Counted from the first letter of the stretch, positions 9,099-33,484 are shown. The stretch is DNA of 36,449 nucleotides from an uncultured Deferribacteres bacterium (GCA_913009825.1 CAJVYQ010000055.1:1-36449), one strand, 5' to 3'. Notes: generated by a model not told the origin, from the sequence alone. Numbers and translations are program-made.

Positions 9099-9178
9099 TT
9101 TTTTCCTTTTACTTTCGGATTCTTTCATTTCTACACAATTTTTCAAAACACGAAACATCCTGCAAAAATTGTAACAAT

Positions 9179-9532
9179 TTACTTTTTGATCACCGCCGGC
9201 CAGCGGGCAATCAGCGGTGTGGAGATGCCGCCTTCATGAACCCAGTGCTTATGCAAGCGAAACGGTGTATTGCCGGCATTCGACCAGGACCGGCCGTAAC
9301 TCATGTAGGAATCGACTCCGCCGGCAGGCAACCCGTTCTTGCGCCGGTCGAATCCCAGCGGGCCGCCTTCATAACAGGCACCGTTATCAGACAGAAGAAG
9401 CACCAGCGTATTCTCTTCCTGTCCCATCTCTTTCAGCTTGGCCATGATTTTCCCCGCGCCGATATCCATGCGATGAATCTGCGCCGCATAGACGGCCATG
9501 CGACGGGACAGATCAGCCTTTCCGTTTAAACT
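9179..9532 (-). pseudogene. Sulfatase (S1 family) fragment
   Basis: About 106-118 codons encode only the middle-to-late part of a formylglycine-type sulfatase: MAVYAAQIHRMD, LVLLLSDNGACYEGG, NTPFRLHKHWVHEGGIS and PLIARWPAVIKK, then a stop. Full family members are about 450-550 residues. The catalytic CxPSR region near the N-terminus and the C-terminal region after PLIAxWP are both missing, and neither was found in the flanks. The reading frame is open upstream of the first ATG (SLNGKADLSRR) until a stop near 9564. It is best read as a truncated relic of a sulfated-polysaccharide locus shared with the GH105 fusion just downstream. Confidence 0.8.
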
Positions 9533-10827: not shown

Positions 10828-11712
10828 ATTAAAAATAGAACGGTCATAAAATATGTTGTATCAGGCCTGTTTCTAACCCTGATGCTGTTGTCCGGTTGCA
10901 GCATCGTCAAAGAAGGGATCAAAAAGCGGAAACCCGGCCTGATGGGATTGGAGCGGGCAGGTTCTTTTGCTGTAGTTTATGCTCCGGTGAAAACGGAACA
11001 GCTCATGCCGTTCGATTTGTTAATTCTTGAAAGTGATGCGTTCACAAAAGGTGAAGTTACGACATTGAAAAAGCAACATAAACTTGTATTAGCCTATCTG
11101 AACGTGGGTGAATTGGAGACGTACCGGAAATACGGGTGCAAAATTCCGCCACAGTGGCTGGTGAGTAAAAATCCCCGCTGGCAGGATCATTATTTCATTA
11201 ATCCGGGAGAGAAGGGTTGGCAGGATCTGCTGATCCATAAAATTATCCCCCCTCTTTTGCGCCGGGGATATCAGGGGTTTTTGTTTGATTCGGTGGACAT
11301 GGCATCTCCCGCCCGGTTTCCCGAGTACAAAGATGACATGGCTCACCTGATCAACCGGATTCGCCGGGCATTTCCGCACATTCTGATTATTCTCAACAAC
11401 GGAGATTTTCTCCTGGATCAAATTGCCGGGGATATTCAGGGACTTCTGGTCGAAGAAGTTTTTTCAGATATAACCGACGATGGAAGCGTAACGGTTCGAC
11501 CCGATATGGAAAGACTGGCCATATTATCCCGTTGGGAAAGGATAAAATCAAAATGGAATTTGCCGGTTTTTTTTGTGGATTATATTCCCGGCGATGATAG
11601 GTTGCCGCTTACGGCGATCCGGGATATTTACCGGAAAGCAAAACTAATCCCATACATCACGGACAAAAATGCACAAGCAATTCATAAGGAATATTTAATA
11701 CGGAAGGAGTAA
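10828..11712 (+). CDS. PelA hydrolase-like lipoprotein (GH114/GH166-type)
   Basis: The product resembles the TM1410/GH114 family and the N-terminal hydrolase domain of PelA, which cut alpha-1,4-galactosamine polymers. Visible motifs are AYLNVGELETYR, RGYQGFLFDSVDM and LVEEVFSD, with acidic residues where this TIM-barrel family places its catalytic groups. LLSGCS is a lipobox, so it should be an envelope lipoprotein. The start is a problem. The first in-frame ATG, at 10882, leaves only four residues before the lipobox Cys. A full signal peptide appears only if translation begins at ATT 10828, five bases after a GGGAGG site, or if the ATG at 10824 is restored to frame by removing one T. It heads the pel operon and probably trims or releases the polymer. 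Confidence 0.8.
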   Translation: MKNRTVIKYVVSGLFLTLMLLSGCSIVKEGIKKRKPGLMGLERAGSFAVVYAPVKTEQLMPFDLLILESDAFTKGEVTTLKKQHKLVLAYLNVGELETYRKYGCKIPPQWLVSKNPRWQDHYFINPGEKGWQDLLIHKIIPPLLRRGYQGFLFDSVDMASPARFPEYKDDMAHLINRIRRAFPHILIILNNGDFLLDQIAGDIQGLLVEEVFSDITDDGSVTVRPDMERLAILSRWERIKSKWNLPVFFVDYIPGDDRLPLTAIRDIYRKAKLIPYITDKNAQAIHKEYLIRKE

Positions 11713-11758
11713 TTGCCGGAAAGTGATGAAACGGTGATAAGCAGTAACGGAGAAAAAA

Positions 11759-12595
11759 ATGCAGATAGAAGTTCGACAGGAAAAACAGTTCATTTATGTG
11801 AAATTCATCCGAACCTGTAATTTGAATTTCGGCAATACTGAAGATTTCAAAACTCAGGTTCTGGAAAAATACAAACCGACACAAACGCTTATTCTGGATT
11901 TTAAAAATCTGGATTTCATTGACAGCGCCGGACTAACCGTGCTCATTCATCTCCGCAGAAAGATATCGGAAACAAAAGGGCAGTTAAAACTGGTAAATAT
12001 TAGCGACAAGATCAGTAAACTTTTACAAATAACCCGGCTGCACCGTATTTTTGATATCTACGAAAACTTCGAAGCGGCATTCAAATCGATTGAACAGAAA
12101 GAGCAAACAAAAGACAAAACGGCCCCCTATGCCATTCACCTGCAAGTGAAACATACACTCTCTTATTCCTGGGTGAAAATCAAACAGCCGGATTCATTGA
12201 TCAAAGCAAACACGGCACAATTCAGGACAAAAATCCGGGAATATCTGAAAAAGGCGCCGACCGTTATTCTTAACTTCGATAATATTCGCAACATCGACAG
12301 TTCCGGGATCGCTTCACTCATCCATTTGAAACGCCTGTCACGGGAGCAGAAGAAAAAAATCCTGTTGGTTTATAACAATCGTGTTCTGAACCGTTTGTTC
12401 AAACTCTATTCATTGGATGATCTGTTCGCACAATTTGAAACGGACAAGGAAGCCATTGCCACCGTGAAACCGGTTGTCATCAAAAGGAAAGCAAAAGCGC
12501 CGGCACCCAAGGTGGAAGTAAAACCAAAACCGGCCATAGCAGGTATGGATTTGCAATTCAGTGACATCCTTTTTCTAACTTCGTTCAATAAATAA
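11759..12595 (+). CDS. Tandem STAS-domain protein in the pel operon
   Basis: The 278-residue protein has two STAS (anti-sigma-factor-antagonist) domains, at about residues 1-115 and 120-235. Each keeps the phosphorylatable-serine motif: DFIDSAGL (Ser56) and NIDSSGI (Ser181 or 182). A basic, Pro/Ala/Lys-rich linker (PVVIKRKAKAPAPK) and a short hydrophobic tail follow. STAS proteins act as switches when their serine is phosphorylated by an HPK-type kinase. No kinase or phosphatase lies in the window. It sits 14 bp before pelD, with a GGAG site before its ATG, so it is likely coexpressed and may act on PelD or another Pel protein. STAS proteins are not part of the classical PelA-G set. Confidence 0.88.
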   Translation: MQIEVRQEKQFIYVKFIRTCNLNFGNTEDFKTQVLEKYKPTQTLILDFKNLDFIDSAGLTVLIHLRRKISETKGQLKLVNISDKISKLLQITRLHRIFDIYENFEAAFKSIEQKEQTKDKTAPYAIHLQVKHTLSYSWVKIKQPDSLIKANTAQFRTKIREYLKKAPTVILNFDNIRNIDSSGIASLIHLKRLSREQKKKILLVYNNRVLNRLFKLYSLDDLFAQFETDKEAIATVKPVVIKRKAKAPAPKVEVKPKPAIAGMDLQFSDILFLTSFNK

Positions 12596-12608
12596 TGCTG
12601 AGGCAACG

Positions 12609-14069
12609 ATGAAAGATAAATATTTTCGCGATATTTTATTTAGTTTAGCTGCTTTTTTCCTCCTGGTCATTGCGGTTAACATCTTTCTGTTTCCGGAAAC
12701 ACCGGGATTCATCGGTTTGAATCCTCATCCATACCTGGTGGTGATCCTGCTCATGTCCGGCCGGTTCGGATTAAAAGAAGGCTTGCTTGCTGCTGTGGTT
12801 TCGGTACTTATTTTGAGTATTTATGTTTATCTGGACACGCAGCCTTATTTTACCTGGAGTATACTGTCGCAGAAAACCATGCTGCTTTCCTTTGCTTCCT
12901 TTTTCCTGGCCGCAGCTATTGTCGGTGAAATGCGCGGGTTCAATAAAAGTTATGAACGAAGTTTGCTGCGCGAGAATGATGAGCTGAAGGGAGAGAGAAG
13001 CCGTCTGCATGAACAATTGGACATCGTTACGCAGATAAAAGAGGAACTGGAAAACCGCATCATCGGTCAGGAAGAAACCATTCATTCACTTTATCAAGCT
13101 ACAAAAGCTTTGGAAACTTTGGAAGAAGAACAATTTTTCCAGGCTTTGCCGCAATTGACCTCCAGATTCACCGGCGCGACAAAAGTATCCCTCTACATGA
13201 TCGATTATTCAAATGATTGTATTTTTCAGGTTGCCCGTTACGGTTGGGGGAAAAACGGAAAATCACAAAAAAAACTGCCTTTGTACGAGGGAATGTTTGG
13301 CCAGGTACTCAAGAACAACTTAATACTTACCATCAAAGAGATTTCCGACCAACCGGAACAGTTGAATATTTGGGAAAAATGTCCCAACAAAGCGTATGCA
13401 TACGTGCCCATCTCCATGGCATCTGTCATCGTAGGTATTTTAACGATCGATGATATCCCATTTCTCAAACTGAATGTTTCCACAGTACGCATCCTTTCCC
13501 TAATTGCCGAACTGGCCGTTCCAACGCTGAAAAACATCATCACTTATCAGGATCTGCAGGAGATGATCAAAACCGATCCGGTCACCGAACTGTTGAAATA
13601 TGATTCATTTGTAAATGTGACTGAAATTGAATTCAAAAAATCCATGCGCTATAATCTGAATTTTTCGCTGGTGGCTGTCGAGATAGAAGGAATGATGGAA
13701 ATTGAAGAAATTTACGGTCACGATGCGAGAATTGAAGTTCTTAAATGGATCAGCGCCCGTATTAAAGAACTCATCCGTAATGTGGATGTCGCCGGCCTGG
13801 GAGAAAGAGAGAATCAATTTTTACTGGCATTACCGGTAACTGATACCGAAGGTGTTCTGGCCGTTATCGATCGATTCAAAGAAAAGGAAAGACGAGCCGG
13901 GGAACAACCCAAATGGCACAGTCACCTGCAATATTATTTCGGGGCAGCATCCTATCATCCTTCCGTCAAATCGTTGGCTGCGCTTTTAAAGATGATGAAC
14001 GAATCGTTGACCATCAACAAATCTTCAAAAAGGCAAATTTCAGCCATGCAGAGAAGGAAAGCGGTCTGA
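12609..14069 (+). CDS. pelD: PelD-like c-di-GMP receptor of Pel synthesis
   Basis: The 486-residue layout matches PelD: about four membrane helices within residues 8-107, a helical linker to about 165, a GAF domain about 165-310, and a GGDEF-like domain about 320-475 opening with DPVTELLKYDSF. The GGDEF signature is replaced by ERENQF, so it should not make c-di-GMP. The upstream inhibitory-site motif RxxD is intact (Arg390-Asn-Val-Asp393), and a further Arg at 422 or 428-429 could complete the pocket. In Pseudomonas PelD, c-di-GMP binding at this site turns on polymer synthesis. The stop overlaps the next start by one base (TGATG). Confidence 0.88.
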   Translation: MKDKYFRDILFSLAAFFLLVIAVNIFLFPETPGFIGLNPHPYLVVILLMSGRFGLKEGLLAAVVSVLILSIYVYLDTQPYFTWSILSQKTMLLSFASFFLAAAIVGEMRGFNKSYERSLLRENDELKGERSRLHEQLDIVTQIKEELENRIIGQEETIHSLYQATKALETLEEEQFFQALPQLTSRFTGATKVSLYMIDYSNDCIFQVARYGWGKNGKSQKKLPLYEGMFGQVLKNNLILTIKEISDQPEQLNIWEKCPNKAYAYVPISMASVIVGILTIDDIPFLKLNVSTVRILSLIAELAVPTLKNIITYQDLQEMIKTDPVTELLKYDSFVNVTEIEFKKSMRYNLNFSLVAVEIEGMMEIEEIYGHDARIEVLKWISARIKELIRNVDVAGLGERENQFLLALPVTDTEGVLAVIDRFKEKERRAGEQPKWHSHLQYYFGAASYHPSVKSLAALLKMMNESLTINKSSKRQISAMQRRKAV

Positions 14070-14839
14070 TGAACTGGAAACGATATTTAGAGATAAAACA
14101 GAACCATCTCCGGGAAGAAAGATATTTTATACCGGAGAATCAAAAGGAAGCCAAGCAGGCGCTGGCTTTGGGCATTATCGACATTAGCCGGTATGTTGAA
14201 TTTTCTTTGACCACCGAACCGCTTCTGGACAGTATTCACGACCCGGATCCAAACGCCCGTAAAGAAGCTATACGCAAGATTGCCGGGAAGAAATCTCCTT
14301 TTTCCGTGCGAATGCTGCATCAGATGCTTGCCGACACCGATGAAGAGGTGCGCCTTTACGCCGCCTCGGAAATTGACCGGTTAGAGGCAGAGCAACAAAA
14401 ACGGATTCATAAATTGAGGAAAAAGCTGAATTCAAACCAGGCCAACCCTGATTCACGGTTCGAACTGGCGAAGCAATATATCGATTATGCGCGTATTTTG
14501 TTGATCAGTCCGAATCTGCGTTCCTTTTTTCTGAACCTTGCTATCGACCTGCTCAATGCAAATTTGCGCGAACGGAAAAATGACCCGGCTTATCTGTTTT
14601 ATCGCGGGCTGGCGTATAAAACCTCCGGAGATAAACAGAATGCGCTGAAAGATCTGAAACAGGTGGTACGCGCGGATAAAAATTATCTACCGGCTTTTGT
14701 AGAACTGGCCGACGTCTATTACTCGGTTAAACGGTTCGATTACGTAAAAAAAATAATGAACATTATTTCCATTGAAAAACAGAACGTTGAGGAGTTTCAT
14801 GCCCAACTTTTTTGGCAGGATAAAAAATCCGTACATTAG
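14069..14839 (+). CDS. PelE-like HEAT/TPR protein without membrane helices
   Basis: The start is taken as the ATG at 14069, which overlaps the pelD stop in TGATG and follows an AAGGA site; a longer frame from 13913 would lie inside pelD. The 256-residue product has HEAT-like units at about 55-110 (DPDPNARKEAIRKIAG, DTDEEVRLYAASEI), a basic helix, then TPRs at about 130-245 (YLFYRGLAYKTSGDKQNALKDL). Classical PelE has two membrane helices plus TPRs and links PelD to the synthase. Here the position and TPRs agree but the helices are missing, so the function is inferred from context. It overlaps the next gene by 41 bases. Confidence 0.75.
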   Translation: MNWKRYLEIKQNHLREERYFIPENQKEAKQALALGIIDISRYVEFSLTTEPLLDSIHDPDPNARKEAIRKIAGKKSPFSVRMLHQMLADTDEEVRLYAASEIDRLEAEQQKRIHKLRKKLNSNQANPDSRFELAKQYIDYARILLISPNLRSFFLNLAIDLLNANLRERKNDPAYLFYRGLAYKTSGDKQNALKDLKQVVRADKNYLPAFVELADVYYSVKRFDYVKKIMNIISIEKQNVEEFHAQLFWQDKKSVH

Positions 14840-17048
14840 TCTGCTCACAATCATCTTCATGATCTGCGCCTGGGCAACGTTTTCGGCAGGTCAGAATTTG
14901 GTACCGAGAAAAATACTGGCATTGTATAAAAGCAGCGAAAACCGCACCGAAGAAGTGAACGAAATCTACCAGCGCGCACAGATATTCCTGAACAATTTAG
15001 GCCTGATGGTTGAGTATGCCGATGCGGAAAAGCCTCTTCCTGATCCATTAAAAATGACTGAATACCGCGGCGTATTAACCTGGTTTGTTAGTGAACAGAT
15101 GAAAAATGTTCATCGTTATCGTCGCTGGTTACAAAGGATCATTACAGAGGATCATCTCCCTGTAGCAATTTTAGGACAGATGGGCGCCTATCGTGAATTT
15201 GGCCGGGATATAAACGGTTCGGACCAAGTGGAAACCGGCGCTATTTTTTCCGACCTGGGATTGAAATCATCCGGTGAAATCTGGGAAAGTGACCAAATTC
15301 TGATCACAACCAAAGATACAGCATTTTTCGACTATGAATGTGTCCTTAATTCCGGCGACATCCGCAGTATCGAAGACGTTGTTTCAATCGATTCCCGCAA
15401 CCGGGTTCTGCTTGAATTGAGTCTGAATGAGGTCCGTAACAGCGCCGCTGTGTTAAGTCCCCATGGTGCTTATCTGCAGGATGAGGTGATTTTCCGGCAA
15501 TACGATGACGGCTACACGCAGTGGTATATCAACCCAACCAAAATTTTTGCCCGGGTTTTCTCCTGCGACCGTATGCCCCGTATCGACATCAACACACTGG
15601 GCGGGAAACGATTAGCTTTCATCCATGTAGACGGCGACGGATTCAGCACCATTTCAAAGATCGACCGTTGGCACCTCTGTGCCCAATTGATGCAGACACG
15701 GATTTTTAATAAATATCCCCTGCCCTACTCTGTTTCGGTCATCGCCGCCGAAATCGATTCCGCTTATATGGGCAATGAAGAAACGGTGCAAACGGCACAG
15801 AAGCTGTACCGCTCGCCCAATGTGGAACCGGCCAGCCACGGTTTTGCTCACCCGTTCAATTGGCGCACCGGCAAGCTGGAGTTGGATTCCATTCCGGATT
15901 ACACATTTGATCCGCGCATGGAAATTAACGGATCGCTTCACTACATCCAAAACAATTTGTTGCCACAAGGTAAAAGCATCAACCTGTTCTTCTGGTCGGG
16001 CATGTGCAACCCCACTTCTGAACAGATTGGATTGACGCAGCGATCGCATGTTCTACAGATCAACGGCGGCGCCGGGCGACTGAATACCGAAAAAGCTTCA
16101 CTCAGTTCGTTTGCACCTCCGTACGCCCAGACAGGAGATCAATTTCGCATCAACGCCAGAATCAGCAACGAATTCGAGTTTACCAACCTGTGGCGCGGTC
16201 CTTTCAACGGCTACCAGGATGTGATTCATTCTATCCGTTACACCGAAAAGAACCGGTTCATTCCTGTGGACCTTTATTTTCATTTTTACAGCATGGAATT
16301 CAACGAAAGCGCCAAAGCGTTGCAAAAAGTGTTGCGATTTGCAGCACATCAGGATTGGAATTTTTTGTACACTTCTCAGTACGTGCAACTGGTAAAAGAT
16401 TTTCTGAGTGCGGAGATCGATTCCACCGGCGATCGGGAATATGTGGTAAAAGGCAGCGGCTTTGTCCGAACCGTGTTTTTGCCGGGCGAAACCGAAAATA
16501 TCAATCTGCGGGAATCCCAAAACATTCTGGGCTACACACACCGTAACGGCCATTTGCTGGTGCATCTGAATGACCAGCCGCAACACCGGATTGTATTGAG
16601 CGAATATCCGGCGCAAGAGCCGTTTTTGCAAATCTTCAATCGTATGGTAGATTCTTACACCAACCAGGCCGACACGGTAAAAATGCGGATTTTCGGCTAC
16701 GGTAATTTTGAGGTGAAATTGCAGAATCTACTGCCACAGCGGAATTACGAGATTAAACAGTTCACCAATTTATCACAGGATGAATATGCAAAGAGAACCT
16801 ATTCACCCCGCCGTTTTGATCGCCTTTTGGGAGAGAAAAACAGCTTTGCGAAAAGCAAAAAGAATGGTTCTATGTTGGTAAAAACATTTATTAAAAATCG
16901 AACCGTTCTGCACATCTATCCGGTGCCGGAGACAAAAAGACTGTTCGCCAATTTCAAACTCATTTTTCTGGGTCTTATTCTGGCCGGATTTTTCGGCGGA
17001 CAGATTGTATTGTTCAAAAGGAAGGGAAATAAACCTGCCACAGACTAA
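14799..17048 (+). CDS. PelA-type deacetylase, exported and membrane-anchored
   Basis: The 749-residue protein starts at the ATG at 14799, five bases after GAGGAG, and has a signal peptide ending near FSAGQ. Residues about 35-200 resemble the reductase-like or amidotransferase-like middle domain of PelA. A polysaccharide-deacetylase barrel follows, with metal/catalytic residues in FIHVDGDGF (Asp278, Asp280) and SHGFAHPFNW (His347, His351). The C-terminal part is beta-rich, and a last hydrophobic helix near residues 712-736 plus a basic tail should anchor it. Partial de-N-acetylation of the polymer is the expected role. The hydrolase half of PelA is a separate gene at 10828. Catch-all annotation might call it DUF2194. 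Confidence 0.8.
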   Translation: MPNFFGRIKNPYISLLTIIFMICAWATFSAGQNLVPRKILALYKSSENRTEEVNEIYQRAQIFLNNLGLMVEYADAEKPLPDPLKMTEYRGVLTWFVSEQMKNVHRYRRWLQRIITEDHLPVAILGQMGAYREFGRDINGSDQVETGAIFSDLGLKSSGEIWESDQILITTKDTAFFDYECVLNSGDIRSIEDVVSIDSRNRVLLELSLNEVRNSAAVLSPHGAYLQDEVIFRQYDDGYTQWYINPTKIFARVFSCDRMPRIDINTLGGKRLAFIHVDGDGFSTISKIDRWHLCAQLMQTRIFNKYPLPYSVSVIAAEIDSAYMGNEETVQTAQKLYRSPNVEPASHGFAHPFNWRTGKLELDSIPDYTFDPRMEINGSLHYIQNNLLPQGKSINLFFWSGMCNPTSEQIGLTQRSHVLQINGGAGRLNTEKASLSSFAPPYAQTGDQFRINARISNEFEFTNLWRGPFNGYQDVIHSIRYTEKNRFIPVDLYFHFYSMEFNESAKALQKVLRFAAHQDWNFLYTSQYVQLVKDFLSAEIDSTGDREYVVKGSGFVRTVFLPGETENINLRESQNILGYTHRNGHLLVHLNDQPQHRIVLSEYPAQEPFLQIFNRMVDSYTNQADTVKMRIFGYGNFEVKLQNLLPQRNYEIKQFTNLSQDEYAKRTYSPRRFDRLLGEKNSFAKSKKNGSMLVKTFIKNRTVLHIYPVPETKRLFANFKLIFLGLILAGFFGGQIVLFKRKGNKPATD

Positions 17049-17049
17049 T

Positions 17050-17082
17050 AAACCTGCCGGGTTTTTAAAACCCGGCAGGTTT
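17050..17082. repeat. Perfect 16-bp inverted repeat between pel genes
   Basis: AAACCTGCCGGGTTTT and AAAACCCGGCAGGTTT flank a single T. In RNA it would form a very stable hairpin with a short T-tract next to it, between the deacetylase stop and pelF. It may cause partial termination or stabilise the upstream message. Similar AAACCTGCCGGGTTTT palindromes are scattered in some environmental genomes, so it may simply be an inserted repeat. Confidence 0.7.
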
Positions 17083-17105
17083 TAGGAAACCGGCAGATTT
17101 AATAG

Positions 17106-18578
17106 ATGTCAAAGACAAAAGGGAACCTGATGGCACTCATCGGCAATAACAGCAGCCACGTAAATAAAATCCGCATTTGCCTGATAGTTGAAGGCGCATA
17201 CCCATATATCGTGGGCGGTGTTTCTATCTGGCTTCATCAACTGATAGAAAATCTGCCGGATATCGAATTTGTTATCTGGACGATTGTGCCGGAAAAGGGA
17301 CAAAAATACAAATTTAAATTACCGGACAATGTGGTTGATTTGGTTGAGATCGCATTATCGGATAAACTGCATGGCGGCAAGCGAAAACATAAAACTCAGT
17401 CACAGTGGAACATCATCCATGATTTTCACGACCGGATGAACCGCGGAGATTTTTCCAAATTCGAGCGGTTCCATGCACAGTTTTCGCCGGATGAGCTCCA
17501 AGCGCTCACACCGGAAAATATATTTAAAGATTTTCAGGGATGGGAGTTGATCACAAAAAAATACAACTTGAATCATCCCATCTCGCCTTTCATCGATTAC
17601 TACTGGGCATGGCGCGCCATTCATATCCCCATAATCCAGATGATGCAGACCACCATTCCGGAGGCGGATATTTACCACGCCATCTCAACGGGATACGCCG
17701 GCCTGCTCGGTGTAATTGCCAAGCTGGGAAAAAACCGGCCACTTTTACTGACCGAGCACGGTATTTATGCCAAAGAGCGGGAGATTGAAATCAATCAATC
17801 CGAAATATTTAAAGGGTATCAAAAACGGATGTGGAAAAAGAGCTACCAGGGTTTAGCCAACATCGCTTATCAATATGCCGACTCCATCATCGCTCTGTTC
17901 AGACGTAATCAGGAAATCCAGATCCAAATGGGCGCACCCCGGGAAAAATGCCGGATAATCCCGAATGGAATTCATATTCAGGATTTTGAGAATCTGCCCC
18001 GAAAGCCGCATAAAGGCTGCAATGTCGGCTTCATCGGCCGTATGGTTGCCATCAAAGATGTGAAAAACTTTTTAATGGCTGCACGCATTATCAAAGATAA
18101 AATCCCTGATGCGGTTTTTTACCTGATCGGCCCGCGTAAAGAGCAGAAAGAGTACTACGCTGAACTTGAAATTCTGGCAGACAATCTATATTTGATCCAA
18201 TCCTTGAAATTTACCGGTCGGGTGGATGTAAAAGACTACTTCCCCATACTGGATGTGATGTGTCTGACCAGCATCAAGGAAGCGCAGCCGTTATCGGTTA
18301 TCGAAGCCATGATGGCCGGTGTTGCAGTTGTTGCTACAGATGTTGGCGACGTTTCCGACTTGCTGCGGAATGACGGCATTGTCGTTCCGCCTAAAAGTCC
18401 GGACAAGCTGGCCGAGGGCGTCATCGAATTTGTCCGGAATCCCGGATTCAGAGAAACCTGCACAAACAGAGCCAGAAAACGGGCGCTAAGAGAATATAAT
18501 CTTAACAAGCTGATCAAAAAATATGATGACATTTATCATCGGTACAGCGGCAGAGAGGAGCAAAAATGGCGGGCGTAG
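17106..18578 (+). CDS. pelF: PelF glycosyltransferase (GT4 family)
   Basis: The 490-residue protein matches the PelF/EpsE type of cytosolic GT-B glycosyltransferase. Near the N-terminus it has the characteristic EGAYPYIVGGVSIWLHQLI, then LTEHGIYAKERE and IPNGIHIQDFE. The GT4 EX7E motif is SIKEAQPLSVIEAM (Glu392 and Glu400). PelF polymerises sugar from UDP-GalNAc/GlcNAc-type donors into the Pel chain. The start at 17106 lacks a close ribosome site; the ATG at 17130, after AGGGAACC, is an alternative that would remove eight residues. The end overlaps pelG by 13 bases. Confidence 0.93.
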   Translation: MSKTKGNLMALIGNNSSHVNKIRICLIVEGAYPYIVGGVSIWLHQLIENLPDIEFVIWTIVPEKGQKYKFKLPDNVVDLVEIALSDKLHGGKRKHKTQSQWNIIHDFHDRMNRGDFSKFERFHAQFSPDELQALTPENIFKDFQGWELITKKYNLNHPISPFIDYYWAWRAIHIPIIQMMQTTIPEADIYHAISTGYAGLLGVIAKLGKNRPLLLTEHGIYAKEREIEINQSEIFKGYQKRMWKKSYQGLANIAYQYADSIIALFRRNQEIQIQMGAPREKCRIIPNGIHIQDFENLPRKPHKGCNVGFIGRMVAIKDVKNFLMAARIIKDKIPDAVFYLIGPRKEQKEYYAELEILADNLYLIQSLKFTGRVDVKDYFPILDVMCLTSIKEAQPLSVIEAMMAGVAVVATDVGDVSDLLRNDGIVVPPKSPDKLAEGVIEFVRNPGFRETCTNRARKRALREYNLNKLIKKYDDIYHRYSGREEQKWRA

Positions 18579-20068
18579 GTTTTGAGCTGCAAAAACTGGT
18601 TAAAAAAGGAACCCTGTTTTCCACGGTGAAAGCTTTTTTTTACGGTTCCGTTTTGGCAGCGGGACCACTTATTTTAACGGTGCTGACGGTGGGCATTATC
18701 GGCTGGATGAGCTATGGCCTGTTCAAAATCGGCGTTTTAAACTTGTTCACCGTCACCCTGGTTTACACCTTCGCTTTTTCTCTGATCCTCACCGGGCCCA
18801 CACAAATTGTGTTTACGCGTTTTGTCGCCGACAAACATTTCAGCAAAGAGGATGAACCGATTTTTCCGGCTTTCATGACCTCCATGATATTTGTCGGTTT
18901 TTTGGCATTGGCCATTTCAATCCCTTTTTACATTTTCCTGGAAATTTACTCACCGGTCGGCAATCCGTTTTTATACAAACTGTTTGGTGTGCTCACCTTT
19001 CTGGCGGTCAGTCTGGTGTGGCAGATTATGGGTTTCATCAGTACCACTAAAGAATATCAAAAAGTAGTTTGGATATATCTGGGAGGAACCATTTTCAGCA
19101 TTTTCCTGGCCTATCTACTGGTGCCAAGAATTTCCGTTTCCGGAGGTTTGGCCGGCTTTTGTGGCGGACAGTGGCTCATTATTTTCTTTTTGGTTCGTAT
19201 CACCACCAAAGAACTGCCGCGGGAAAAATTCTGGAACAAAGAATATTTTGCCTATTTTCGCCGTTATTCTACCATTTCCCTGACCGGCTTATTTTACAAT
19301 ATCGGCTTATGGTCGGATAAATTTATTTTCTGGGGCCATTTCAAACAACAGCAGGGCGCTTCTTTTTTTTACACTTTTAATTTTTACGATGTGCCCAATT
19401 TCCTGGCTTTTTTAACCATCATTCCGGCGCTGGCTTATTTTCTCATTCTCACCGAAACCAATTTTTTCAAAGATTACAAAGGTTTTATAGATGATGTTCT
19501 GACACAGCCGCTTTTGATTATTGAACGTAAAAAAAGCGACATGATTGAGACGCTGAAAGAAGGGATGAGGGGGATGACCAAACTACAAGGAATTGTCACG
19601 CTGCTTCTCATTGTCTTCGCCGAGCCGTTGTTGGTTTTTCTGGGTTACCGGGGCATTTCTATCTGGTTGTTTCGTGTTCTTCTGGTCGGCATTTTTTTTC
19701 ATGTGATCAATTTGAACATAAGTATTATTTTCCTTTATTACGAAATGCGCAAAGAAGCACTGATGCTAACCATTTTATTCGCCTTTTTAAATGCGGCATT
19801 GACCTACTTTTCCATCCTTTTGGGTACGCCTTTTTACGGCTTCGGATTTCTGCTGGCTGCCGGAATAACCTGTGCCATCTCGTGGCCCCTGCTCATACGC
19901 GCCATGAAACGCATCGATTTCATCATCTTTTCCTCACAGCCTGTCGATGCCGTGGTGAAAGTAAAAAAGAAGAGATTCCGGGAAAGAATTTTACAGCCGT
20001 TTGCCGCTTTCCGCAACCGCAGAGCCAACGGCAACGGCGCAAAGGTTCAGGCTGAATATTACAGTTAA
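18566..20068 (+). CDS. pelG: PelG inner-membrane polysaccharide transporter
   Basis: The 500-residue protein opens with MAGVGFELQKLVKKG, a segment typical of PelG, and carries about twelve hydrophobic helices across residues 20-465, as in the MATE/MOP flippase-like PelG family. It moves the growing polymer across the inner membrane together with PelD, PelE and PelF. A GAGGAG site lies inside the end of pelF, and the 13-base overlap suggests translational coupling. The C-terminal tail (about 465-500) is basic and probably cytosolic. The match in length, N-terminal motif and position leaves little doubt. Confidence 0.93.
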   Translation: MAGVGFELQKLVKKGTLFSTVKAFFYGSVLAAGPLILTVLTVGIIGWMSYGLFKIGVLNLFTVTLVYTFAFSLILTGPTQIVFTRFVADKHFSKEDEPIFPAFMTSMIFVGFLALAISIPFYIFLEIYSPVGNPFLYKLFGVLTFLAVSLVWQIMGFISTTKEYQKVVWIYLGGTIFSIFLAYLLVPRISVSGGLAGFCGGQWLIIFFLVRITTKELPREKFWNKEYFAYFRRYSTISLTGLFYNIGLWSDKFIFWGHFKQQQGASFFYTFNFYDVPNFLAFLTIIPALAYFLILTETNFFKDYKGFIDDVLTQPLLIIERKKSDMIETLKEGMRGMTKLQGIVTLLLIVFAEPLLVFLGYRGISIWLFRVLLVGIFFHVINLNISIIFLYYEMRKEALMLTILFAFLNAALTYFSILLGTPFYGFGFLLAAGITCAISWPLLIRAMKRIDFIIFSSQPVDAVVKVKKKRFRERILQPFAAFRNRRANGNGAKVQAEYYS

Positions 20069-20082
20069 AAGGACAAAAAACG

Positions 20083-21834
20083 ATGAAAAAAATAAACGGA
20101 TCGATCCGATTCATTTTGTTGTTTTCCCTGGTGCAGGCTTTCACGCTTCGTCCAGACCTGCCGGCCCAGGAAAGAATGACTGTAAATTACGCCACAAAAA
20201 TGAGATCGGAACAGGAAGTTCTCACACTCTGCGATCAGTACGTGGAACAGGATAAAATCCCTGCCGCTATTGAATTTCTGGAAAGTGAAAAGGAGAATTT
20301 CCCATATTCAATCAGATTGAGAAAAAGATTGGCTGATTACTACCAACAGAGCGAACAACTTTCCGCTTCCATTGCCACGTACAAAGAGATCATCAAAATC
20401 GACCGGAAAAACCCGGCTTATTGGCGCGAATTGGCAAAATTATACACCTGGAACGATAAACAACCGGAGGCTATTTTGGCTTATCGGGAAGCACTGGTTC
20501 TGCAGCCAAACGATGTGCAGACCATGAAGCAGCTCAGCCGGTTGTACATCTGGAACGACCGGCAGGAAGATGCGTATGCTCTGCAAAAAGAAATTTTACG
20601 GCTCGAGCCGGACAACATTGCACTGTGGCGTGAACATGGTATCCAGGCACGCTGGCTCAAAAAAAATGAAGAAGCCATCGATTCGTTTAAAAATATCATT
20701 CGCCGGGACCATGAAAATGTGGAAGCCTATTATCTGTTGGGCGAAACATATTTGTGGATGGATAAAACAGATGAAGCAAAAATTTGTTTCGATCAGGTTC
20801 TGAAAATGCAGCCCAACCATATCCAGGCGACTTTCTACTCCGCCCAGTTGCAGCAGTGGCAGCCTTCCGGTTGGTGGGAAGCACGAAAAAAATATCGCAG
20901 AATTCTGCAGCAGCAACCGGATCATGAAGGCAGCAAAAAATACTATGGTATAATCCGAAAAGAATACGGCCCGTTCTGGCAAAACGAGGGACAGTACATT
21001 CACGATTCCAACAATTTAAAAAAGAGGGAAGTTACGTCTTCGTACGAGCAGTACCTGTCGCCGCGATGGAAAATCAGCGGCGCTGTGCTGTACAGAAACC
21101 TGGAGGAACAAAAACCGGCAGGACATTTTTTAGCCTACGGTCAAGGTGGAAATCTGGGCAGCACCTGGTACCTAAGCGCGAAAACACGGGTCGTTGCTTC
21201 GGCCGGTTACATTAATTTCAATGAGCGGGAGAATTTCTTTCTCTCCAAACTGCAATGGCAGCAAACTCTTTCTTCCGGCGAAAATTGGCCGGGACAGCTT
21301 TTTTCGACACTGTCCTTTAAGTATGATCAAGTACTGGACGGCGTTTTGGCCATTAAAAACAGATACACTGCCGGAATTTTGCAGCATCAATTTTATTGGA
21401 AGCCGGTTACAAAAGCAAAGTTTGGCAGTGATTTTCAATACGGCTGGTATTCGGATCAGAACCGGAAGACCCAATTGTATGTAACCGGTGAGTATCAATT
21501 TTATGCCGGCAAACCCGTTCTGTTTTTTGAATCGGTTTATTCTTACCAAGACATGAAAATCATGTACCCGGATGCCGTTCCGTACTGGACGCCAAACAAT
21601 TTCTGGACAATTTCAACTGGGCTGGACGCAGTTTTTCCGGTTCGTTACAATTTATTGTTCCGCGTCGGTTACGCATTAACTCAGCAAACCGGCAACGAAT
21701 TAGCCAACAATTACAAAGCGGAATTTAACTGGCATCCCAATGATTATTCCTACCTGTTCGTTCACTATTACGATTTCGGCTCGCAGTATTATGCGTTCAA
21801 AAGTTTTATGGCGGGATTTTTGTACCGGTGGTGA
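20083..21834 (+). CDS. PelB-like TPR protein with C-terminal outer-membrane barrel
   Basis: The 583-residue protein has a signal peptide (to about residue 28), TPR repeats about 40-290 with a recurring LYxWND signature (YTWNDKQ, YIWNDRQ, YLWMDKT), then a beta-barrel region about 300-583 of alternating aromatic strands ending in YRW (a C-terminal aromatic is typical of barrels). This is the PelB architecture in miniature: Pseudomonas PelB is about 1190 residues with many more TPRs. The barrel also resembles the YaiO family. It should be the outer-membrane export pore, and the TPRs may bind the deacetylase. No PelC lipoprotein partner is seen. It begins 14 bp after pelG and ends the operon. Confidence 0.82.
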   Translation: MKKINGSIRFILLFSLVQAFTLRPDLPAQERMTVNYATKMRSEQEVLTLCDQYVEQDKIPAAIEFLESEKENFPYSIRLRKRLADYYQQSEQLSASIATYKEIIKIDRKNPAYWRELAKLYTWNDKQPEAILAYREALVLQPNDVQTMKQLSRLYIWNDRQEDAYALQKEILRLEPDNIALWREHGIQARWLKKNEEAIDSFKNIIRRDHENVEAYYLLGETYLWMDKTDEAKICFDQVLKMQPNHIQATFYSAQLQQWQPSGWWEARKKYRRILQQQPDHEGSKKYYGIIRKEYGPFWQNEGQYIHDSNNLKKREVTSSYEQYLSPRWKISGAVLYRNLEEQKPAGHFLAYGQGGNLGSTWYLSAKTRVVASAGYINFNERENFFLSKLQWQQTLSSGENWPGQLFSTLSFKYDQVLDGVLAIKNRYTAGILQHQFYWKPVTKAKFGSDFQYGWYSDQNRKTQLYVTGEYQFYAGKPVLFFESVYSYQDMKIMYPDAVPYWTPNNFWTISTGLDAVFPVRYNLLFRVGYALTQQTGNELANNYKAEFNWHPNDYSYLFVHYYDFGSQYYAFKSFMAGFLYRW

Positions 21835-22033: not shown

Positions 22034-23092
22034 TCACCCCGTCTTTTTAAACATTTCCATATTATGAGCGAATAAAGCTGCCTGATCGCGGGTAATTTTT
22101 CTGTTTTTAATATGCTGCATCAGGCTTTGATCCATGGTTTGCATGTTGTATTTACCGCTGGTTTGGATAATGGACGTAATCTGGTGGGTCTTTCCTTCAC
22201 GGATTAAATTTCTGATTGCCGGTGTTGCCACCATCACCTCCATGGCCGCAACCCGGCCTCTGCCGTCCTGTGTGGGCAGCAGCCGCTGGGAAATGATACC
22301 GATGACGGCATCGGAAAACTGTGCCCGGATCTGATCCTGCTGATCGGCGGGAAAAACATCGACCACACGGTTGATTGTTTCCGCCGCACTGTTCGTATGC
22401 AGTGTGCCAAATACCAGGTGACCCGTTTCTGCAGCGGTTAACGCCAGCGCTATCGTTTCCAGATCGCGCATTTCACCGATCAGGATCACATCGGGGTCCT
22501 CGCGCAATGCGGCACGCAAAGCGTTGGCAAACGATTTTGTGTGCGGACCTAATTCCCGCTGGTTAATCAGGCATTTATTACCGCAGTAAATATATTCGAT
22601 AGGATCTTCAATGGTTAACACATGTAAATATTTTTCGTTATCGATCAGATCGATCATGGCCGCCAACGTGGTTGATTTACCGGAACCGGTTGGTCCTGTA
22701 ACCAGCACCAGCCCCTCCTGCTCCCGGGCTAATTGATACACCCCCTGCGGCGCGCCTAATTTCTGCATAGAACGAATTTTTTCCGGAATTACCCGAAAGG
22801 CGATGGAGATGCCATACAATTGATTGTAAACATTGGTCCGGAACCGGGCTACATTTTTAATTGGATAAGCAAAATCCAGCTCCTTTTGCTGCTCAAAATG
22901 GCGCAGTTGCTCTTCGGAAAGAAGTTCTCTGACAAGTTGCTGCAATTGAGCCGCCGTCAATTTGTTTGAATCAAATCTTTTTAATTGCCCGTGCACTCGA
23001 ATGGTTGGCGGCGTTCCGGCCACGATATGAATATCCGAAGCTTCTTTTTGCACCGCAAAAGTGAGGATTTTATTCAGAGTTTCTACATTCAT
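22034..23092 (-). CDS. pilT: PilT retraction ATPase of type IV pili
   Basis: The 352-residue length is typical. Walker A is GPTGSGKST (133-141), Walker B is in DVILIGEMRD (201-210) with the catalytic Glu, and the His box is HLVFGTLHTN. The PilT-specific AIRNLIRE motif, needed for retraction, is present after about residue 275. It powers pilus disassembly and twitching from the cytoplasmic side. The gene is the last of the minus-strand pilus cluster, starting 6 bases after the pilQ stop. It is convergent with the pel operon, with about 200 bp between the stop codons and no clear hairpin there. Confidence 0.97.
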   Translation of the reverse strand: MNVETLNKILTFAVQKEASDIHIVAGTPPTIRVHGQLKRFDSNKLTAAQLQQLVRELLSEEQLRHFEQQKELDFAYPIKNVARFRTNVYNQLYGISIAFRVIPEKIRSMQKLGAPQGVYQLAREQEGLVLVTGPTGSGKSTTLAAMIDLIDNEKYLHVLTIEDPIEYIYCGNKCLINQRELGPHTKSFANALRAALREDPDVILIGEMRDLETIALALTAAETGHLVFGTLHTNSAAETINRVVDVFPADQQDQIRAQFSDAVIGIISQRLLPTQDGRGRVAAMEVMVATPAIRNLIREGKTHQITSIIQTSGKYNMQTMDQSLMQHIKNRKITRDQAALFAHNMEMFKKTG

Positions 23093-23098
23093 GGAATA

Positions 23099-24784
23099 TC
23101 AACGCAAAATATGCGGCGTAATGAATATTACCAGGTCTCTCTGCTGCTTTTTATAAGAAGAGTGGCGAAACAGGTTGCCAATCAGTGGAATATCACCCAG
23201 CAAAAAAACTTTACTTACCGTTTTCTTGCGATCCTCCTTGATCATGCCGCCGATAACGATAGTTTCTCCGTCCTTCACCGTTACCACTGTATTCACCGTT
23301 CTCTTCGATGTGATCGGCGCCCGGTTGACATCGATCACCACTTCACCGGTGATTTCTTCGATGATGGGATTTACATACATGATGATTTCATTCTCATTCA
23401 CCACGTGAGCCGTAACATTCAATTCGATATCCACATCTTTATAATTGAATGTAACAATATCTCCCTGTCCGGCTACACCGCGGTTAATCTGTGGCACCGG
23501 AAAAGTAGTGCCCACACTAATCCGGGAAGTGACATTGTCTGTGGCAATTACACGGGGGTTGGAAATCAACTTGGTTTCAGTCGTTTCTTTTAAAAAATCC
23601 AGCACCACTGAAAACTGGCTTGCGGTCAAATGACCTAATTTCCAGGAACTGTTTCGCTGCAGGCCGTCATTCATGGCGCTGTATTTGATATTGTCGCCGG
23701 ATGGCAGCACGTCGTCGGATACCAGCGAAGCAGTCAGGGTTTTGTCCCAGTCGATACCAATGGTTTCTTTTTGCAGGGGTGCCAGCTCAAGTAATTTGGA
23801 TTCGATAACAATTTGCGGCGACGGAAGATCCAACTGCGCGACAATCTCATCGATCTTGGCAATCACATCGGGACGTTCTGTTACAATTAAAGTGCTCGAT
23901 CTTTTTTTTAGCCCATTCTTATCTACCACCGCATTTTTTGTCCCTGTCTCTAATTGATTGTAAAATTCCGGTGAAAGAACCTGGATTTTGCTTTTTTCCG
24001 GCAGCATATCCCGGATAATTTTTTTCAGGTTTTCCGCATTGATATATTTCAGATGATACACTTTGGTCTGCGATAATGATGGGAAAAAAGTGTCATTTTT
24101 TTTCACCAAAATTACATCTTTATTGATCACATAATCGAAACCGCCGGCGTACAGAATATTGTCCAGCGCTTCTTTTAAGGTTACATTGCGCAAGCTCAGG
24201 GTTACATTTCCGGTCACATCATTGCCGGCAACAATATTCACCTTATTTTGATCCGCTAACAGACGCAGCACATTGGCTAAATCGGCGCCCCGGTAATCCA
24301 TTGTGATTTTATTGTTGGCGTACAACGGCCCCTTTCTTTCAATGCGATTCTTCTGATCCCTGCCATCCCTGCCGCCGGCAGACGATTCTTTGCTCAAAGG
24401 TGCGTCACCTTCGATGTAAGTGACAATATCCAGTCCGTCATAATCGATGGCGTATTTGCGGCTCACTTTAAAATCAACAATAAATTCAACCACGCCGGCA
24501 TCCCCTTCGGATTGGCGAATGAACATTTTTTTCACCGGCCCTTTTTTCGGAACGATAGTATCTTTATCTCCGCCCCAGACAGAGCCACGAATATAGACAA
24601 CCAGCCGTTTATTTTCCGGCAGCCAGATACTGCCAAACGGAACTTTATGGCTGGAAATTACCCTGCATTGGTATTCAAACTCGCTTTTCGCATAAGAAAT
24701 CTGGGTAAGATAATTTGTTTGGCCAAAAAGTTGTGTAAACCAGAGCAGCATAACGATTGTTGCACTTATTTTTTTCAATATCAT
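23099..24784 (-). CDS. pilQ: PilQ secretin of type IV pili
   Basis: The ATG at 24784 is preferred over an upstream TTG at 24796, which lies inside pilP. This gives 561 residues with a signal peptide ending near FGQ. An AMIN-like beta region is followed by a short STN/N0 domain (about 165-230: ITMDYRGADLANVLRLLADQ), an N1 domain (VYHLKYINAENLKKII) and the secretin barrel, ending in VTVKDGETIVIGGMI, IPLIGNLF and DLVIFITPHIL. It forms the outer-membrane pore for the pilus. It is short for PilQ because it seems to have a reduced AMIN region. Confidence 0.95.
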   Translation of the reverse strand: MILKKISATIVMLLWFTQLFGQTNYLTQISYAKSEFEYQCRVISSHKVPFGSIWLPENKRLVVYIRGSVWGGDKDTIVPKKGPVKKMFIRQSEGDAGVVEFIVDFKVSRKYAIDYDGLDIVTYIEGDAPLSKESSAGGRDGRDQKNRIERKGPLYANNKITMDYRGADLANVLRLLADQNKVNIVAGNDVTGNVTLSLRNVTLKEALDNILYAGGFDYVINKDVILVKKNDTFFPSLSQTKVYHLKYINAENLKKIIRDMLPEKSKIQVLSPEFYNQLETGTKNAVVDKNGLKKRSSTLIVTERPDVIAKIDEIVAQLDLPSPQIVIESKLLELAPLQKETIGIDWDKTLTASLVSDDVLPSGDNIKYSAMNDGLQRNSSWKLGHLTASQFSVVLDFLKETTETKLISNPRVIATDNVTSRISVGTTFPVPQINRGVAGQGDIVTFNYKDVDIELNVTAHVVNENEIIMYVNPIIEEITGEVVIDVNRAPITSKRTVNTVVTVKDGETIVIGGMIKEDRKKTVSKVFLLGDIPLIGNLFRHSSYKKQQRDLVIFITPHILR

Positions 24785-24785
24785 G

Positions 24786-25286
24786 TTATTCACCAAATCT
24801 TAAGATAGATTTTTTCCCATTGAATGAATAAATTACTTTGTTTCCTATCACATCAATGACATGAATGCCGTTTTTCTGCTCCCCTTCCCGGTAGACATCA
24901 TCATTGATAATGACATACGCCACACTATCGCGCCAGGAAATAGCCTTCAGTACAAACGGTTCAACCTTTTCTCTTTTCTGCAGCGAATCCAGAATATCCG
25001 GAGTAAATGATCCCAAAAACGGATCTCTTTTCCATTTGGTTAAAAATTCAGAATTTACCATAGAATTCATATTAACCCGTCTGATTGCCGATTTAACGGG
25101 GAAATCAAGCAACGGTGTTTCTTGTACTCCCGGTTTTAGCGTTTGATCTCCGATCACCTGAATTTTATTTTTTTTAGCTGGAGCCGGTTTTTTGTCATCA
25201 GATAAAATAAACGTATTGAAGACATAAAAGGTAACCGAAATAGTCAACATGCTAAGCAATCTTTTTTCATTTTTTTTCAATGCCAT
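24786..25286 (-). CDS. PilP-like pilus alignment protein
   Basis: The 166-residue protein has an N-terminal membrane helix (about residues 11-28) instead of the lipoprotein signal typical of PilP, a linker rich in Lys and Pro, and a small beta domain (about 85-166) with FVLKAISWRDSVAYVIINDD and VYREGEQKNGIHVIDVIGNKV, which resembles the PilP HR-type beta-sandwich that binds PilQ. Position between pilO and pilQ supports this. It ends one base before the pilQ ATG. Similarity to PilP is structural and positional rather than by strong motif. Confidence 0.75.
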   Translation of the reverse strand: MALKKNEKRLLSMLTISVTFYVFNTFILSDDKKPAPAKKNKIQVIGDQTLKPGVQETPLLDFPVKSAIRRVNMNSMVNSEFLTKWKRDPFLGSFTPDILDSLQKREKVEPFVLKAISWRDSVAYVIINDDVYREGEQKNGIHVIDVIGNKVIYSFNGKKSILRFGE

Positions 25287-25295
25287 AATTTAAAA

Positions 25296-25949
25296 TCATC
25301 CTTTTTTTGCTGGCGGCGCTTTTTTCCCTGCAACCGTCCGGGCTTTTTCCTCGTTCAGCAGAAAAAGAAAGCCTTTCACCGTGATTCTCAATTTGGGATA
25401 GATTTTCGCATCCGCTTCCAGATAAACTTCATCGGGGGAAAATACAAACGGTAATTTATCGGTGTCGGCAATAAATTTTCCCAGAGAAACATAGCGCCCG
25501 GTCAATCTTATTTCCAACGGCACTTTTACCAGCGGCTGTCCCTTTTTATTCATCGAACCTACGGGAAACAGGACATCGTAATTAGGCAGCATGGATTGAA
25601 CCGATAACCGGTGCGCCGAGGCAAACCGGATGATCTGTTTGGCAATACCCGGCATATCATCCAGATAATATATCCGCTCTTCAATCTTTTTTATTTGCAC
25701 ATTCAGTGTATCTACATCCTGCGCCAATTTATCAATGGCATCTTCCGAAACGGTAGCCATTCTGATTTTCTGTGTCCATTGGGAAATATTATGAGAAAAA
25801 CCACTTATTTTAACCTGGGTCGGTTGATAATAAATTAGAAACCAGACGACGATCAACCCGGATAAAATCAGAGTTCCAATGATAATTTTTTGAAAAAAAC
25901 TTTGCTGAATTCTGCCCGGCAAGTTTTTATTTTTTTTTGCCAACAACAT
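25296..25949 (-). CDS. pilO: PilO pilus alignment protein
   Basis: The 217-residue protein has the PilO layout: a short basic cytosolic start, one membrane helix (about 22-41), a coiled coil (about 55-95: DTLNVQIKKIEERIYYL) and a ferredoxin-like C-terminal domain with PLEIRLTGRYVSLGKFIADT, the family signature. It pairs with the PilN part of the upstream fusion to bridge the inner-membrane platform and the secretin. It lies 10 bases after pilMN and 9 bases before pilP. The tail (about 195-217) is Lys/Ala/Pro-rich. Confidence 0.9.
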   Translation of the reverse strand: MLLAKKNKNLPGRIQQSFFQKIIIGTLILSGLIVVWFLIYYQPTQVKISGFSHNISQWTQKIRMATVSEDAIDKLAQDVDTLNVQIKKIEERIYYLDDMPGIAKQIIRFASAHRLSVQSMLPNYDVLFPVGSMNKKGQPLVKVPLEIRLTGRYVSLGKFIADTDKLPFVFSPDEVYLEADAKIYPKLRITVKGFLFLLNEEKARTVAGKKAPPAKKG

Positions 25950-25959
25950 AGAATGCCTG

Positions 25960-33345: not shown

Positions 33346-33484
33346 ATTGACTGTTTTAGTATTACTAAAATGGTATATTGCAAATCAAATTTGTTTGAAT
33401 ATCCAAATGTTCGGTATCCGAATATAATATTAACTTTATTAAAAAATGGAAAATTTATTATCCATTATCAAAATGATTACTATT

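What the first reader, a model, noticed from the sequence alone, without database searches (positions are those of the whole stretch)
10828..21834. Divergent Pel operon with PelA split in two and no PelC
Seen: eight plus-strand genes with short gaps or overlaps, including clear PelD, PelF and PelG. The hydrolase and the deacetylase, normally one PelA chain, are separate genes at opposite sides of PelD/PelE. The deacetylase has its own signal peptide and C-terminal membrane anchor, and the hydrolase looks like a lipoprotein. PelB is about half the usual size, and no small PelC-like lipoprotein is found. Known: Pel export in Pseudomonas uses PelA with PelB and PelC. Inference: this lineage uses a different envelope arrangement, with hydrolase and deacetylase on different membranes.
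Basis: partly seen in the sequence, partly recalled or inferred. Interest (0 to 1): 0.75.

Follow-up and report, generated by a model that had tools for sequence, protein, structure and literature searches.

The report
Split, membrane-anchored Pel biofilm-sugar operon
An uncultured bacterium of the KSB1/Calditrichota group carries a rearranged version of the Pel biofilm-sugar machine in which the sugar-trimming enzyme PelA is two separate proteins, one of them fixed in the inner membrane, and the outer-membrane part is shortened and lacks its usual PelC ring, which gives a natural comparison for asking why other bacteria need that ring.

Summary
Window 10828-21834 is one pel operon: PelA-hydrolase-like lipoprotein, tandem-STAS protein, PelD, PelE, PelA-type deacetylase, PelF, PelG, short PelB. 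The deacetylase matches PelA by sequence (3e-48) and fold, the hydrolase more weakly (5e-9); catalytic residues are kept. No PelC and no second deacetylase were found in the genome (96% complete).

Split PelA is already known in Gram-positive pelDEADAFG clusters, and in a 61-row deacetylase tree split and fused types form two deep clades across many phyla: an old arrangement, not a local break. PelC mostly tracks the fused clade, with exceptions both ways.

New here: a Calditrichota subclade (9 rows, 100/100) in which, where sequence is complete, the deacetylase lies in the synthase block and has a C-terminal membrane helix, PelE lacks the membrane helices found in all 40 other PelE homologues scanned, and tandem-STAS precedes pelD. 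PelB is short (7 TPRs, 16-strand barrel) or not found.

Best reading: a diderm Pel machine with the deacetylase built into the inner-membrane synthase; a new variant of a known kind. Function is untested.

The parts
10828..11712 (+). PelA hydrolase-like lipoprotein (GH114 profile; cf. GH166 domain of PelA), 'PelAH'; lipobox LLSG|C; probable ATT start behind GGGAGG
   Evidence: Pfam GH114 4.8e-15; PelA 9cgy/5tcb 4.6e-9/6.5e-9; D154 and E209 invariant in A3 and aligned with the PelA LFLD/VES positions
11759..12595 (+). tandem-STAS protein; first domain keeps D-S-A-G with the phospho-acceptor-like Ser56
   Evidence: Pfam STAS 4.4e-29, two stretches; D55-S56-A57-G58 invariant in all 7 aligned proteins
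12609..14069 (+). PelD: N-terminal TM helices, GAF, degenerate GGDEF (GEREN) with I-site R390xxD393
14069..14839 (+). PelE: HEAT/TPR protein without the N-terminal TM helices of other PelE proteins (ORF opens at 13913, overlapping pelD; start 14069 preferred)
14772..17048 (+). PelA-type deacetylase (CE21-like), N-terminal signal/TM segment and C-terminal TM anchor; ATG 14799 with RBS GAGGAG is the likely start
   Evidence: PelA 9cgy 3.4e-48, profile 3.9e-120, fold E 2.9e-43, TM 0.71/0.66; D287, D289, H356, H360 invariant; TM 724-742, helix 729-752
17106..18578 (+). PelF glycosyltransferase
   Evidence: NF038011 1.5e-99, DUF3492 1.3e-80
18566..20068 (+). PelG polysaccharide exporter; only copy in the genome
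   Evidence: PF16933 8.3e-118
20083..21834 (+). short PelB: probable signal peptide, 7 TPRs, stalk helix, 16-strand beta-barrel
   Evidence: AF2 model pLDDT 88.3; Foldseek PelBC 9h80 4.5e-11, PgaA 4y25 TMt 0.80, BcsC 9b8a/6tzk

Best explanation
This is a Pel (partially de-N-acetylated alpha-1,4-GalNAc) synthesis and export operon of a diderm bacterium of the KSB1/Calditrichota group, of a 'split-PelA, inner-membrane-deacetylase' variant. Proposed working: c-di-GMP binds the PelD I-site and switches on PelF; the chain leaves through PelG. The deacetylase is a type-I membrane protein held next to PelG by its C-terminal helix, with PelE as a soluble adaptor on the cytoplasmic side, and it de-N-acetylates the chain as it emerges, as proposed for Bacillus cereus PelADA. 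The cationic polymer then passes to a short PelB porin. Because the deacetylase no longer needs to dock on PelB, PelB keeps only a few TPRs; no PelC ring is used. The hydrolase is a separate lipoprotein for trimming or release of Pel and is dispensable in relatives. The tandem-STAS protein is probably an added on/off regulator of the synthase. Shown by sequence: gene identities, catalytic residues, anchors, absence of PelC from the genome as held. Inferred: activity, polymer identity, PelE/PelG contacts, membrane of the lipoprotein, role of STAS, cause of PelB shortening.
For: PelF/PelG/PelD and deacetylase identities; conserved catalytic residues against the PelA residues named in PMC12022489. 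The Calditrichota subclade is monophyletic, 9 rows, 100/100; all its rows with intact ends have the deacetylase after PelE and/or before PelF and a C-terminal hydrophobic segment (KD maximum 1.57-2.44 versus at most 1.52, mostly below 1.1, in all other loci), and all its PelE proteins lack TM segments while 40 other PelE proteins of 312 aa or more have them. PelB frames in type-A genomes are 592-644 aa versus 1115-1133 in eight sister genomes; PelBC-like fold. No PelC in the genome or in any pel locus of the phylum. No strong hydrolase match in G002, G011, G013, G023 although these have the deacetylase. I-site RxxD kept.
Against: No expression or chemistry. The genomes are MAG-like assemblies, 72-100% complete, with contig breaks; absence of PelC rests on a profile search. 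The TM call of one member (L040) is borderline (1.57). Anchor, soluble PelE and short PelB coincide in one clade only, so they may be one evolutionary event and do not prove a functional link. No PelB barrel was found in three f9 genomes of the same clade, so export there is unexplained. Lipoprotein sorting in this phylum is unknown.
Confidence: 0.7

Rival explanations
1. The cluster makes a Pel-like but chemically different polymer; the parts are homologous but the sugar or the degree of deacetylation differs.
For: PelG is only 28-33% identical to the full-length matches on Pseudomonadota and Fusobacteriota plasmids (main group); no UDP-GalNAc epimerase gene was identified in the operon (not searched for in the genome); PMC7112194 cautions that divergent pel operons may give another composition.
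Against: PelF equivalog score far above cut-off (334 versus 100 bits); PelA-type deacetylase and hydrolase active sites conserved.
Confidence: 0.15
2. Hydrolase and deacetylase sit on the same (inner) membrane, or the hydrolase is surface-exposed, so the two-membrane picture is wrong while the rest of the model stands.
For: The Lol +2 rule is not established for this phylum; the deacetylase anchor is inner-membrane by topology.
Against: The +2 residue is Ser in the window, not Asp; hydrolases in related Calditrichota loci have Ala, Ser, Thr or Val.
Confidence: 0.3
3. A canonical PelA and a PelC are encoded in the missing 4% of the genome and the operon works in the ordinary way.
For: Genome 95.9% complete in 123 contigs.
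Against: No related genome of the phylum has a pel-linked PelC or a Pseudomonas-type fused PelA; the deacetylase active site is intact in this operon.
Confidence: 0.04
4. The operon is decaying and non-functional.
For: PelB shortened, PelC missing, no ordinary start codon for the hydrolase.
Against: All frames open, short gaps and overlaps, catalytic residues conserved over 41-53% identity with same-layout relatives.
Confidence: 0.04

Closest known systems
Pseudomonas aeruginosa pelABCDEFG
   Same: PelD with I-site, PelE core, PelF, PelG, PelB-type TPR porin, PelA-family deacetylase and hydrolase catalytic residues
   Different: PelA is two proteins; deacetylase has a C-terminal TM anchor; PelE lacks TM helices; PelB has 7 TPRs, whereas the P. 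aeruginosa model numbers PelB TPRs to at least 15 (PMC12022489); no PelC; extra tandem-STAS gene; hydrolase gene upstream of pelD
Gram-positive pelDEADAFG with separate pelAH (Bacillus cereus, Streptococcus)
   Same: Order D-E-deacetylase-F-G; membrane-anchored separate deacetylase; separate hydrolase gene
   Different: Anchor is C-terminal, not N-terminal; deacetylase is of the PelA/CE21 type (9cgy), while B. cereus PelADA founded CE26; hydrolase is in the operon as a lipoprotein; an outer-membrane PelB is present; PelE is soluble
Sister Calditrichota/KSB1 clusters: deacetylase-hydrolase-PelB(1110 aa)-PelD-PelE-PelF-PelG
   Same: Split PelA, lipoprotein hydrolase, no PelC
   Different: Deacetylase without C-terminal anchor, PelE with TM helices, full-length PelB, no STAS gene
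Fusobacteriota (Cetobacterium plasmid, L136): GH114-PelD-DUF2194-PelE-like-PelF-PelG
   Same: Diderm with separate hydrolase and deacetylase in one pel cluster
   Different: Deacetylase is DUF2194, with no detectable sequence relation to the window's (hhalign E 0.36)

Membership tests
Pel system (core PelDEFG synthase) | PelF GT4 glycosyltransferase | tested here: met
   NF038011 1.5e-99, 334 bits versus cut-off 100
Pel system (core PelDEFG synthase) | PelG exporter | tested here: met
   PF16933 8.3e-118
Pel system (core PelDEFG synthase) | PelD: TM + GAF + degenerate GGDEF with I-site RxxD | tested here: met
   R390-N-V-D393, GEREN in place of GGDEF, aligned with RGLD of Pseudomonas
Pel system (core PelDEFG synthase) | PelE with N-terminal TM helices | tested here: not met
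   TPR/HEAT part present, TM part missing
P. aeruginosa-type pelABCDEFG | hydrolase and deacetylase in one PelA chain | tested here: not met
   two genes with three genes between them; no other deacetylase in the genome
P. aeruginosa-type pelABCDEFG | PelC lipoprotein | tested here: not met
   none in window or genome; a PelC profile built without them still gives 77-101 bits to distant PelC proteins
P. aeruginosa-type pelABCDEFG | PelB: TPRs + 16-strand barrel | tested here: met
   shorter TPR part
Gram-positive pelDEADAFG type | gene order D-E-deacetylase-F-G and membrane-anchored deacetylase | tested here: met
Gram-positive pelDEADAFG type | deacetylase of CE26 (B. cereus PelADA, 9ZAU) | tested here: inconclusive
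   only PelA 9cgy found in PDB by profile and as the one close fold; whether 9ZAU is in the copies is not known; no sequence relation to a Fusobacterial DUF2194 deacetylase
Gram-positive pelDEADAFG type | no outer-membrane export parts | tested here: not met
   PelB porin in the operon
Pel polymer | partially de-N-acetylated alpha-1,4-GalNAc product | not testable with these tools
   needs chemistry

The most novel reading that the evidence does not exclude
In one Calditrichota subclade the membrane anchor of the synthase hub moved from PelE to the deacetylase, making de-N-acetylation an integral step of inner-membrane export in a diderm (convergent with Gram-positives), so that PelB lost its PelA-docking TPRs; and, more widely, PelC belongs functionally with the fused PelA rather than with Pel export as such.
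Probability: 0.35. Interest if true: 0.65.

Novelty: new variant of a known kind. Interest (0 to 1): 0.5.

Why it matters
Why Pel export needs the PelC ring is called 'puzzling' in the PelBC cryo-EM paper (PMC12141448), where one suggestion is that PelC holds the large two-domain PelA in place. Natural systems with PelB but with split PelA and no PelC suggest that the ring is not a requirement of Pel-type porins in general and give a direct comparison set. The subclade also gives a diderm example of a deacetylase apparently built into the inner-membrane synthase, so far modelled only for Gram-positive Pel.

Tried and rejected
PelC elsewhere in the genome: the one match is a CsgG-family protein of a kind also matched in relatives without Pel: rejected. 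Idea that the anchored deacetylase explains the lack of PelC: rejected, since sister families with an unanchored deacetylase also lack PelC. Idea of a strict rule 'fused PelA <-> PelC': rejected. Of 42 loci scored the counts were fused with PelC 21, fused without 4, split with PelC 4, split without 13; one 'split with' (L070) and one 'fused without' (L084) are contig cuts; real exceptions are Verrucomicrobia L073 and L075 and Planctomycetota L046 (fused, no PelC), and L043, L059, L066 and L054 (split, PelC; L054 not in the counts). The tree allows only 2-3 independent contrasts, so no significance can be claimed. Relation of the deacetylase to DUF2194: none by sequence. Viral contigs scan: nothing.

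Full report
What is there. The window is a whole contig (C55) of a 5.1 Mb, 95.9% complete genome. Named records of the closest deacetylase relatives are candidate division KSB1, Calditrichaeota/Caldithrix and similar MAGs, so the host is placed in the KSB1/Calditrichota group. A type IV pilus secretin next door (window 23102-24796) agrees with an outer membrane. Eight genes lie head to tail from 10828 to 21834 with gaps from -68 to 57 bases.

Identity of the parts. PelF and PelG are certain. PelD has GAF and a degenerate GGDEF domain with the c-di-GMP I-site R390xxD393. PelE is a HEAT/TPR protein. The 758-aa protein has no Pfam match but aligns with PelA (9cgy) at 3.4e-48, its family profile at 3.9e-120, and its AlphaFold model (pLDDT 86.6) has PelA as its one close PDB fold (E 2.9e-43). 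The PelA catalytic base and metal triad (D528, D530, H600, H604 in P. aeruginosa; PMC12022489) correspond to D287, D289, H356, H360, invariant in alignments of 15 and 20 proteins; H504, nearly invariant, corresponds to the putative catalytic acid H761. The first gene is a GH114-type hydrolase matching the PelA hydrolase domain (4.6e-9 and 6.5e-9) and slightly better TM1410 (4.7e-11), with the two acidic residues aligned. The last gene models as 7 TPRs, a stalk helix and 16 strands (pLDDT 88.3) and matches PelBC, PgaA and BcsC folds.

Anchors. The deacetylase has hydrophobic segments at 22-40 and 724-742, the latter followed by FKRKGNK, i.e. a periplasmic domain with the tail inside. The hydrolase has a lipobox; its start codon is probably ATT at 10828. 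In the related loci, C-terminal anchors occur only in one clade, and the same clade has PelE proteins of 251-299 aa without TM segments, while 40 other PelE proteins of 312-396 aa have one or more (duplicate loci of the same genome left out of that count). This combined change is the strongest new observation. TM calls are by hydropathy only.

Comparison of gene orders. Type A (window, L038, L024, L040, L041, with L039 partial): [hydrolase]-STAS-D-E-deacetylase-F-G-short PelB, as far as contigs reach. Type C (L027, L042, L053; family f9): STAS-D-E-deacetylase-F-G, with no hydrolase and no PelB barrel found in G011 or G023, 99-100% complete. Type B (other Calditrichota families): deacetylase-hydrolase-PelB of about 1110 aa-D-E-F-G. 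Types A and C are one clade of nine rows with 100/100 support. PelB frames are 592, 605, 614, 639 and 644 aa in five type-A genomes and 1115-1133 in eight type-B genomes.

Deep history. The deacetylase tree has two well-supported sides (100/99): 28 rows that are nearly all fused PelA (Pseudomonadota, Aquificota, Geobacter group, Verrucomicrobiota, some Elusimicrobia) and 33 rows nearly all split (Calditrichota, Myxococcota, Desulfo groups, Anammoxibacter, Elusimicrobia, Rokubacteria, Sericytochromatia). The root is unknown, so fusion and fission cannot be told apart. Apparent exceptions: L046 is fused on the split side; L087 is unfused on the fused side; L070 is cut by its contig.

PelC. A profile from 16 PelC proteins finds PelC in every locus of the 24-row fused subclade with enough sequence (22 loci including L070; L081 and L084 are short contigs), not in Verrucomicrobia L073 and L075, and on the split side only in L043, L054, L059 and L066. 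In 59 genomes of the phylum nothing PelC-like is linked to pel. The co-occurrence is striking but rests on 2-3 independent contrasts and is not significant.

Known before. Split PelA in Gram-positives (PMC7112168, PMC13254593, PMC12345266); rearrangements of pelA and fission of pelB (PMC7112194); pelADEFG in KSB1 clade IV, without comment on the split in the passages read (PMC9012183); full-length PelA across Gram-negative phyla (PMC12022489). In the papers read I found no description of split PelA in diderms with PelB, of the C-terminal anchor, of the soluble PelE or of the STAS gene; the library holds open-access papers only, so this is not proof of novelty.

Mechanism. In P. aeruginosa the polymer is thought to travel along PelB TPRs 1-9 to PelA docked on TPRs 9-15 (PMC12022489). 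Here PelB has seven TPRs and the deacetylase has its own inner-membrane anchor and sits in the synthase gene block. The simplest reading is that deacetylation is moved to the exit of PelG, as AlphaFold models suggest for B. cereus PelADA and PelG (PMC13254593). That step is inference. Lack of PelC cannot be due to the anchor, since type B lacks both.

Noticed in passing
window 14069-14839 and L038, L024, L040, L041, L042, L027: PelE in this clade has lost the N-terminal TM helices that all other PelE homologues scanned have.
   Followed up: yes
window 11759-12595: Tandem-STAS gene before pelD in all type A/C loci whose upstream sequence is held; first domain has an invariant DSAG. A kinase or phosphatase partner was not looked for.
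   Followed up: partly
G000:C12:76998-77342 (-): A second GH114-like stretch in the same genome carries two in-frame TGA stops, probably a broken gene.
   Followed up: no
window 22034-28164 (-): Type IV pilus block (T2SSE-type ATPase, secretin, 734-aa PilM-like protein) directly downstream, convergent with the pel operon.
   Followed up: partly
window 6711-9158 and 9179-9499 (-): BNR_4 + GH88 protein next to a short ORF that by eye looks like a fragment of a sulfatase.
   Followed up: no
window 33446-35098 (+): Protein with a Por_Secre_tail domain, a type IX secretion signal.
   Followed up: no
L136 3785-12112: Cetobacterium somerae megaplasmid carries GH114-PelD-DUF2194-PelE-like-PelF-PelG: another split arrangement in a diderm, with a different deacetylase family.
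   Followed up: partly
L042 4330-6216: Type C pel clusters lie beside a PIG-L deacetylase and a GT4 glycosyltransferase that resemble bacillithiol genes.
   Followed up: no
L054: Desulfacinum: PelC, hydrolase, deacetylase and PelB on one strand, PelD-E-F-G convergent on the other.
   Followed up: no
L035 9096-11195 (G034): Deacetylase interrupted by two in-frame TAA codons.
   Followed up: no
G069:C76 and C56 (L120, L124): Deacetylase frames of 1239-1251 aa with the N-terminal domain repeated.
   Followed up: no
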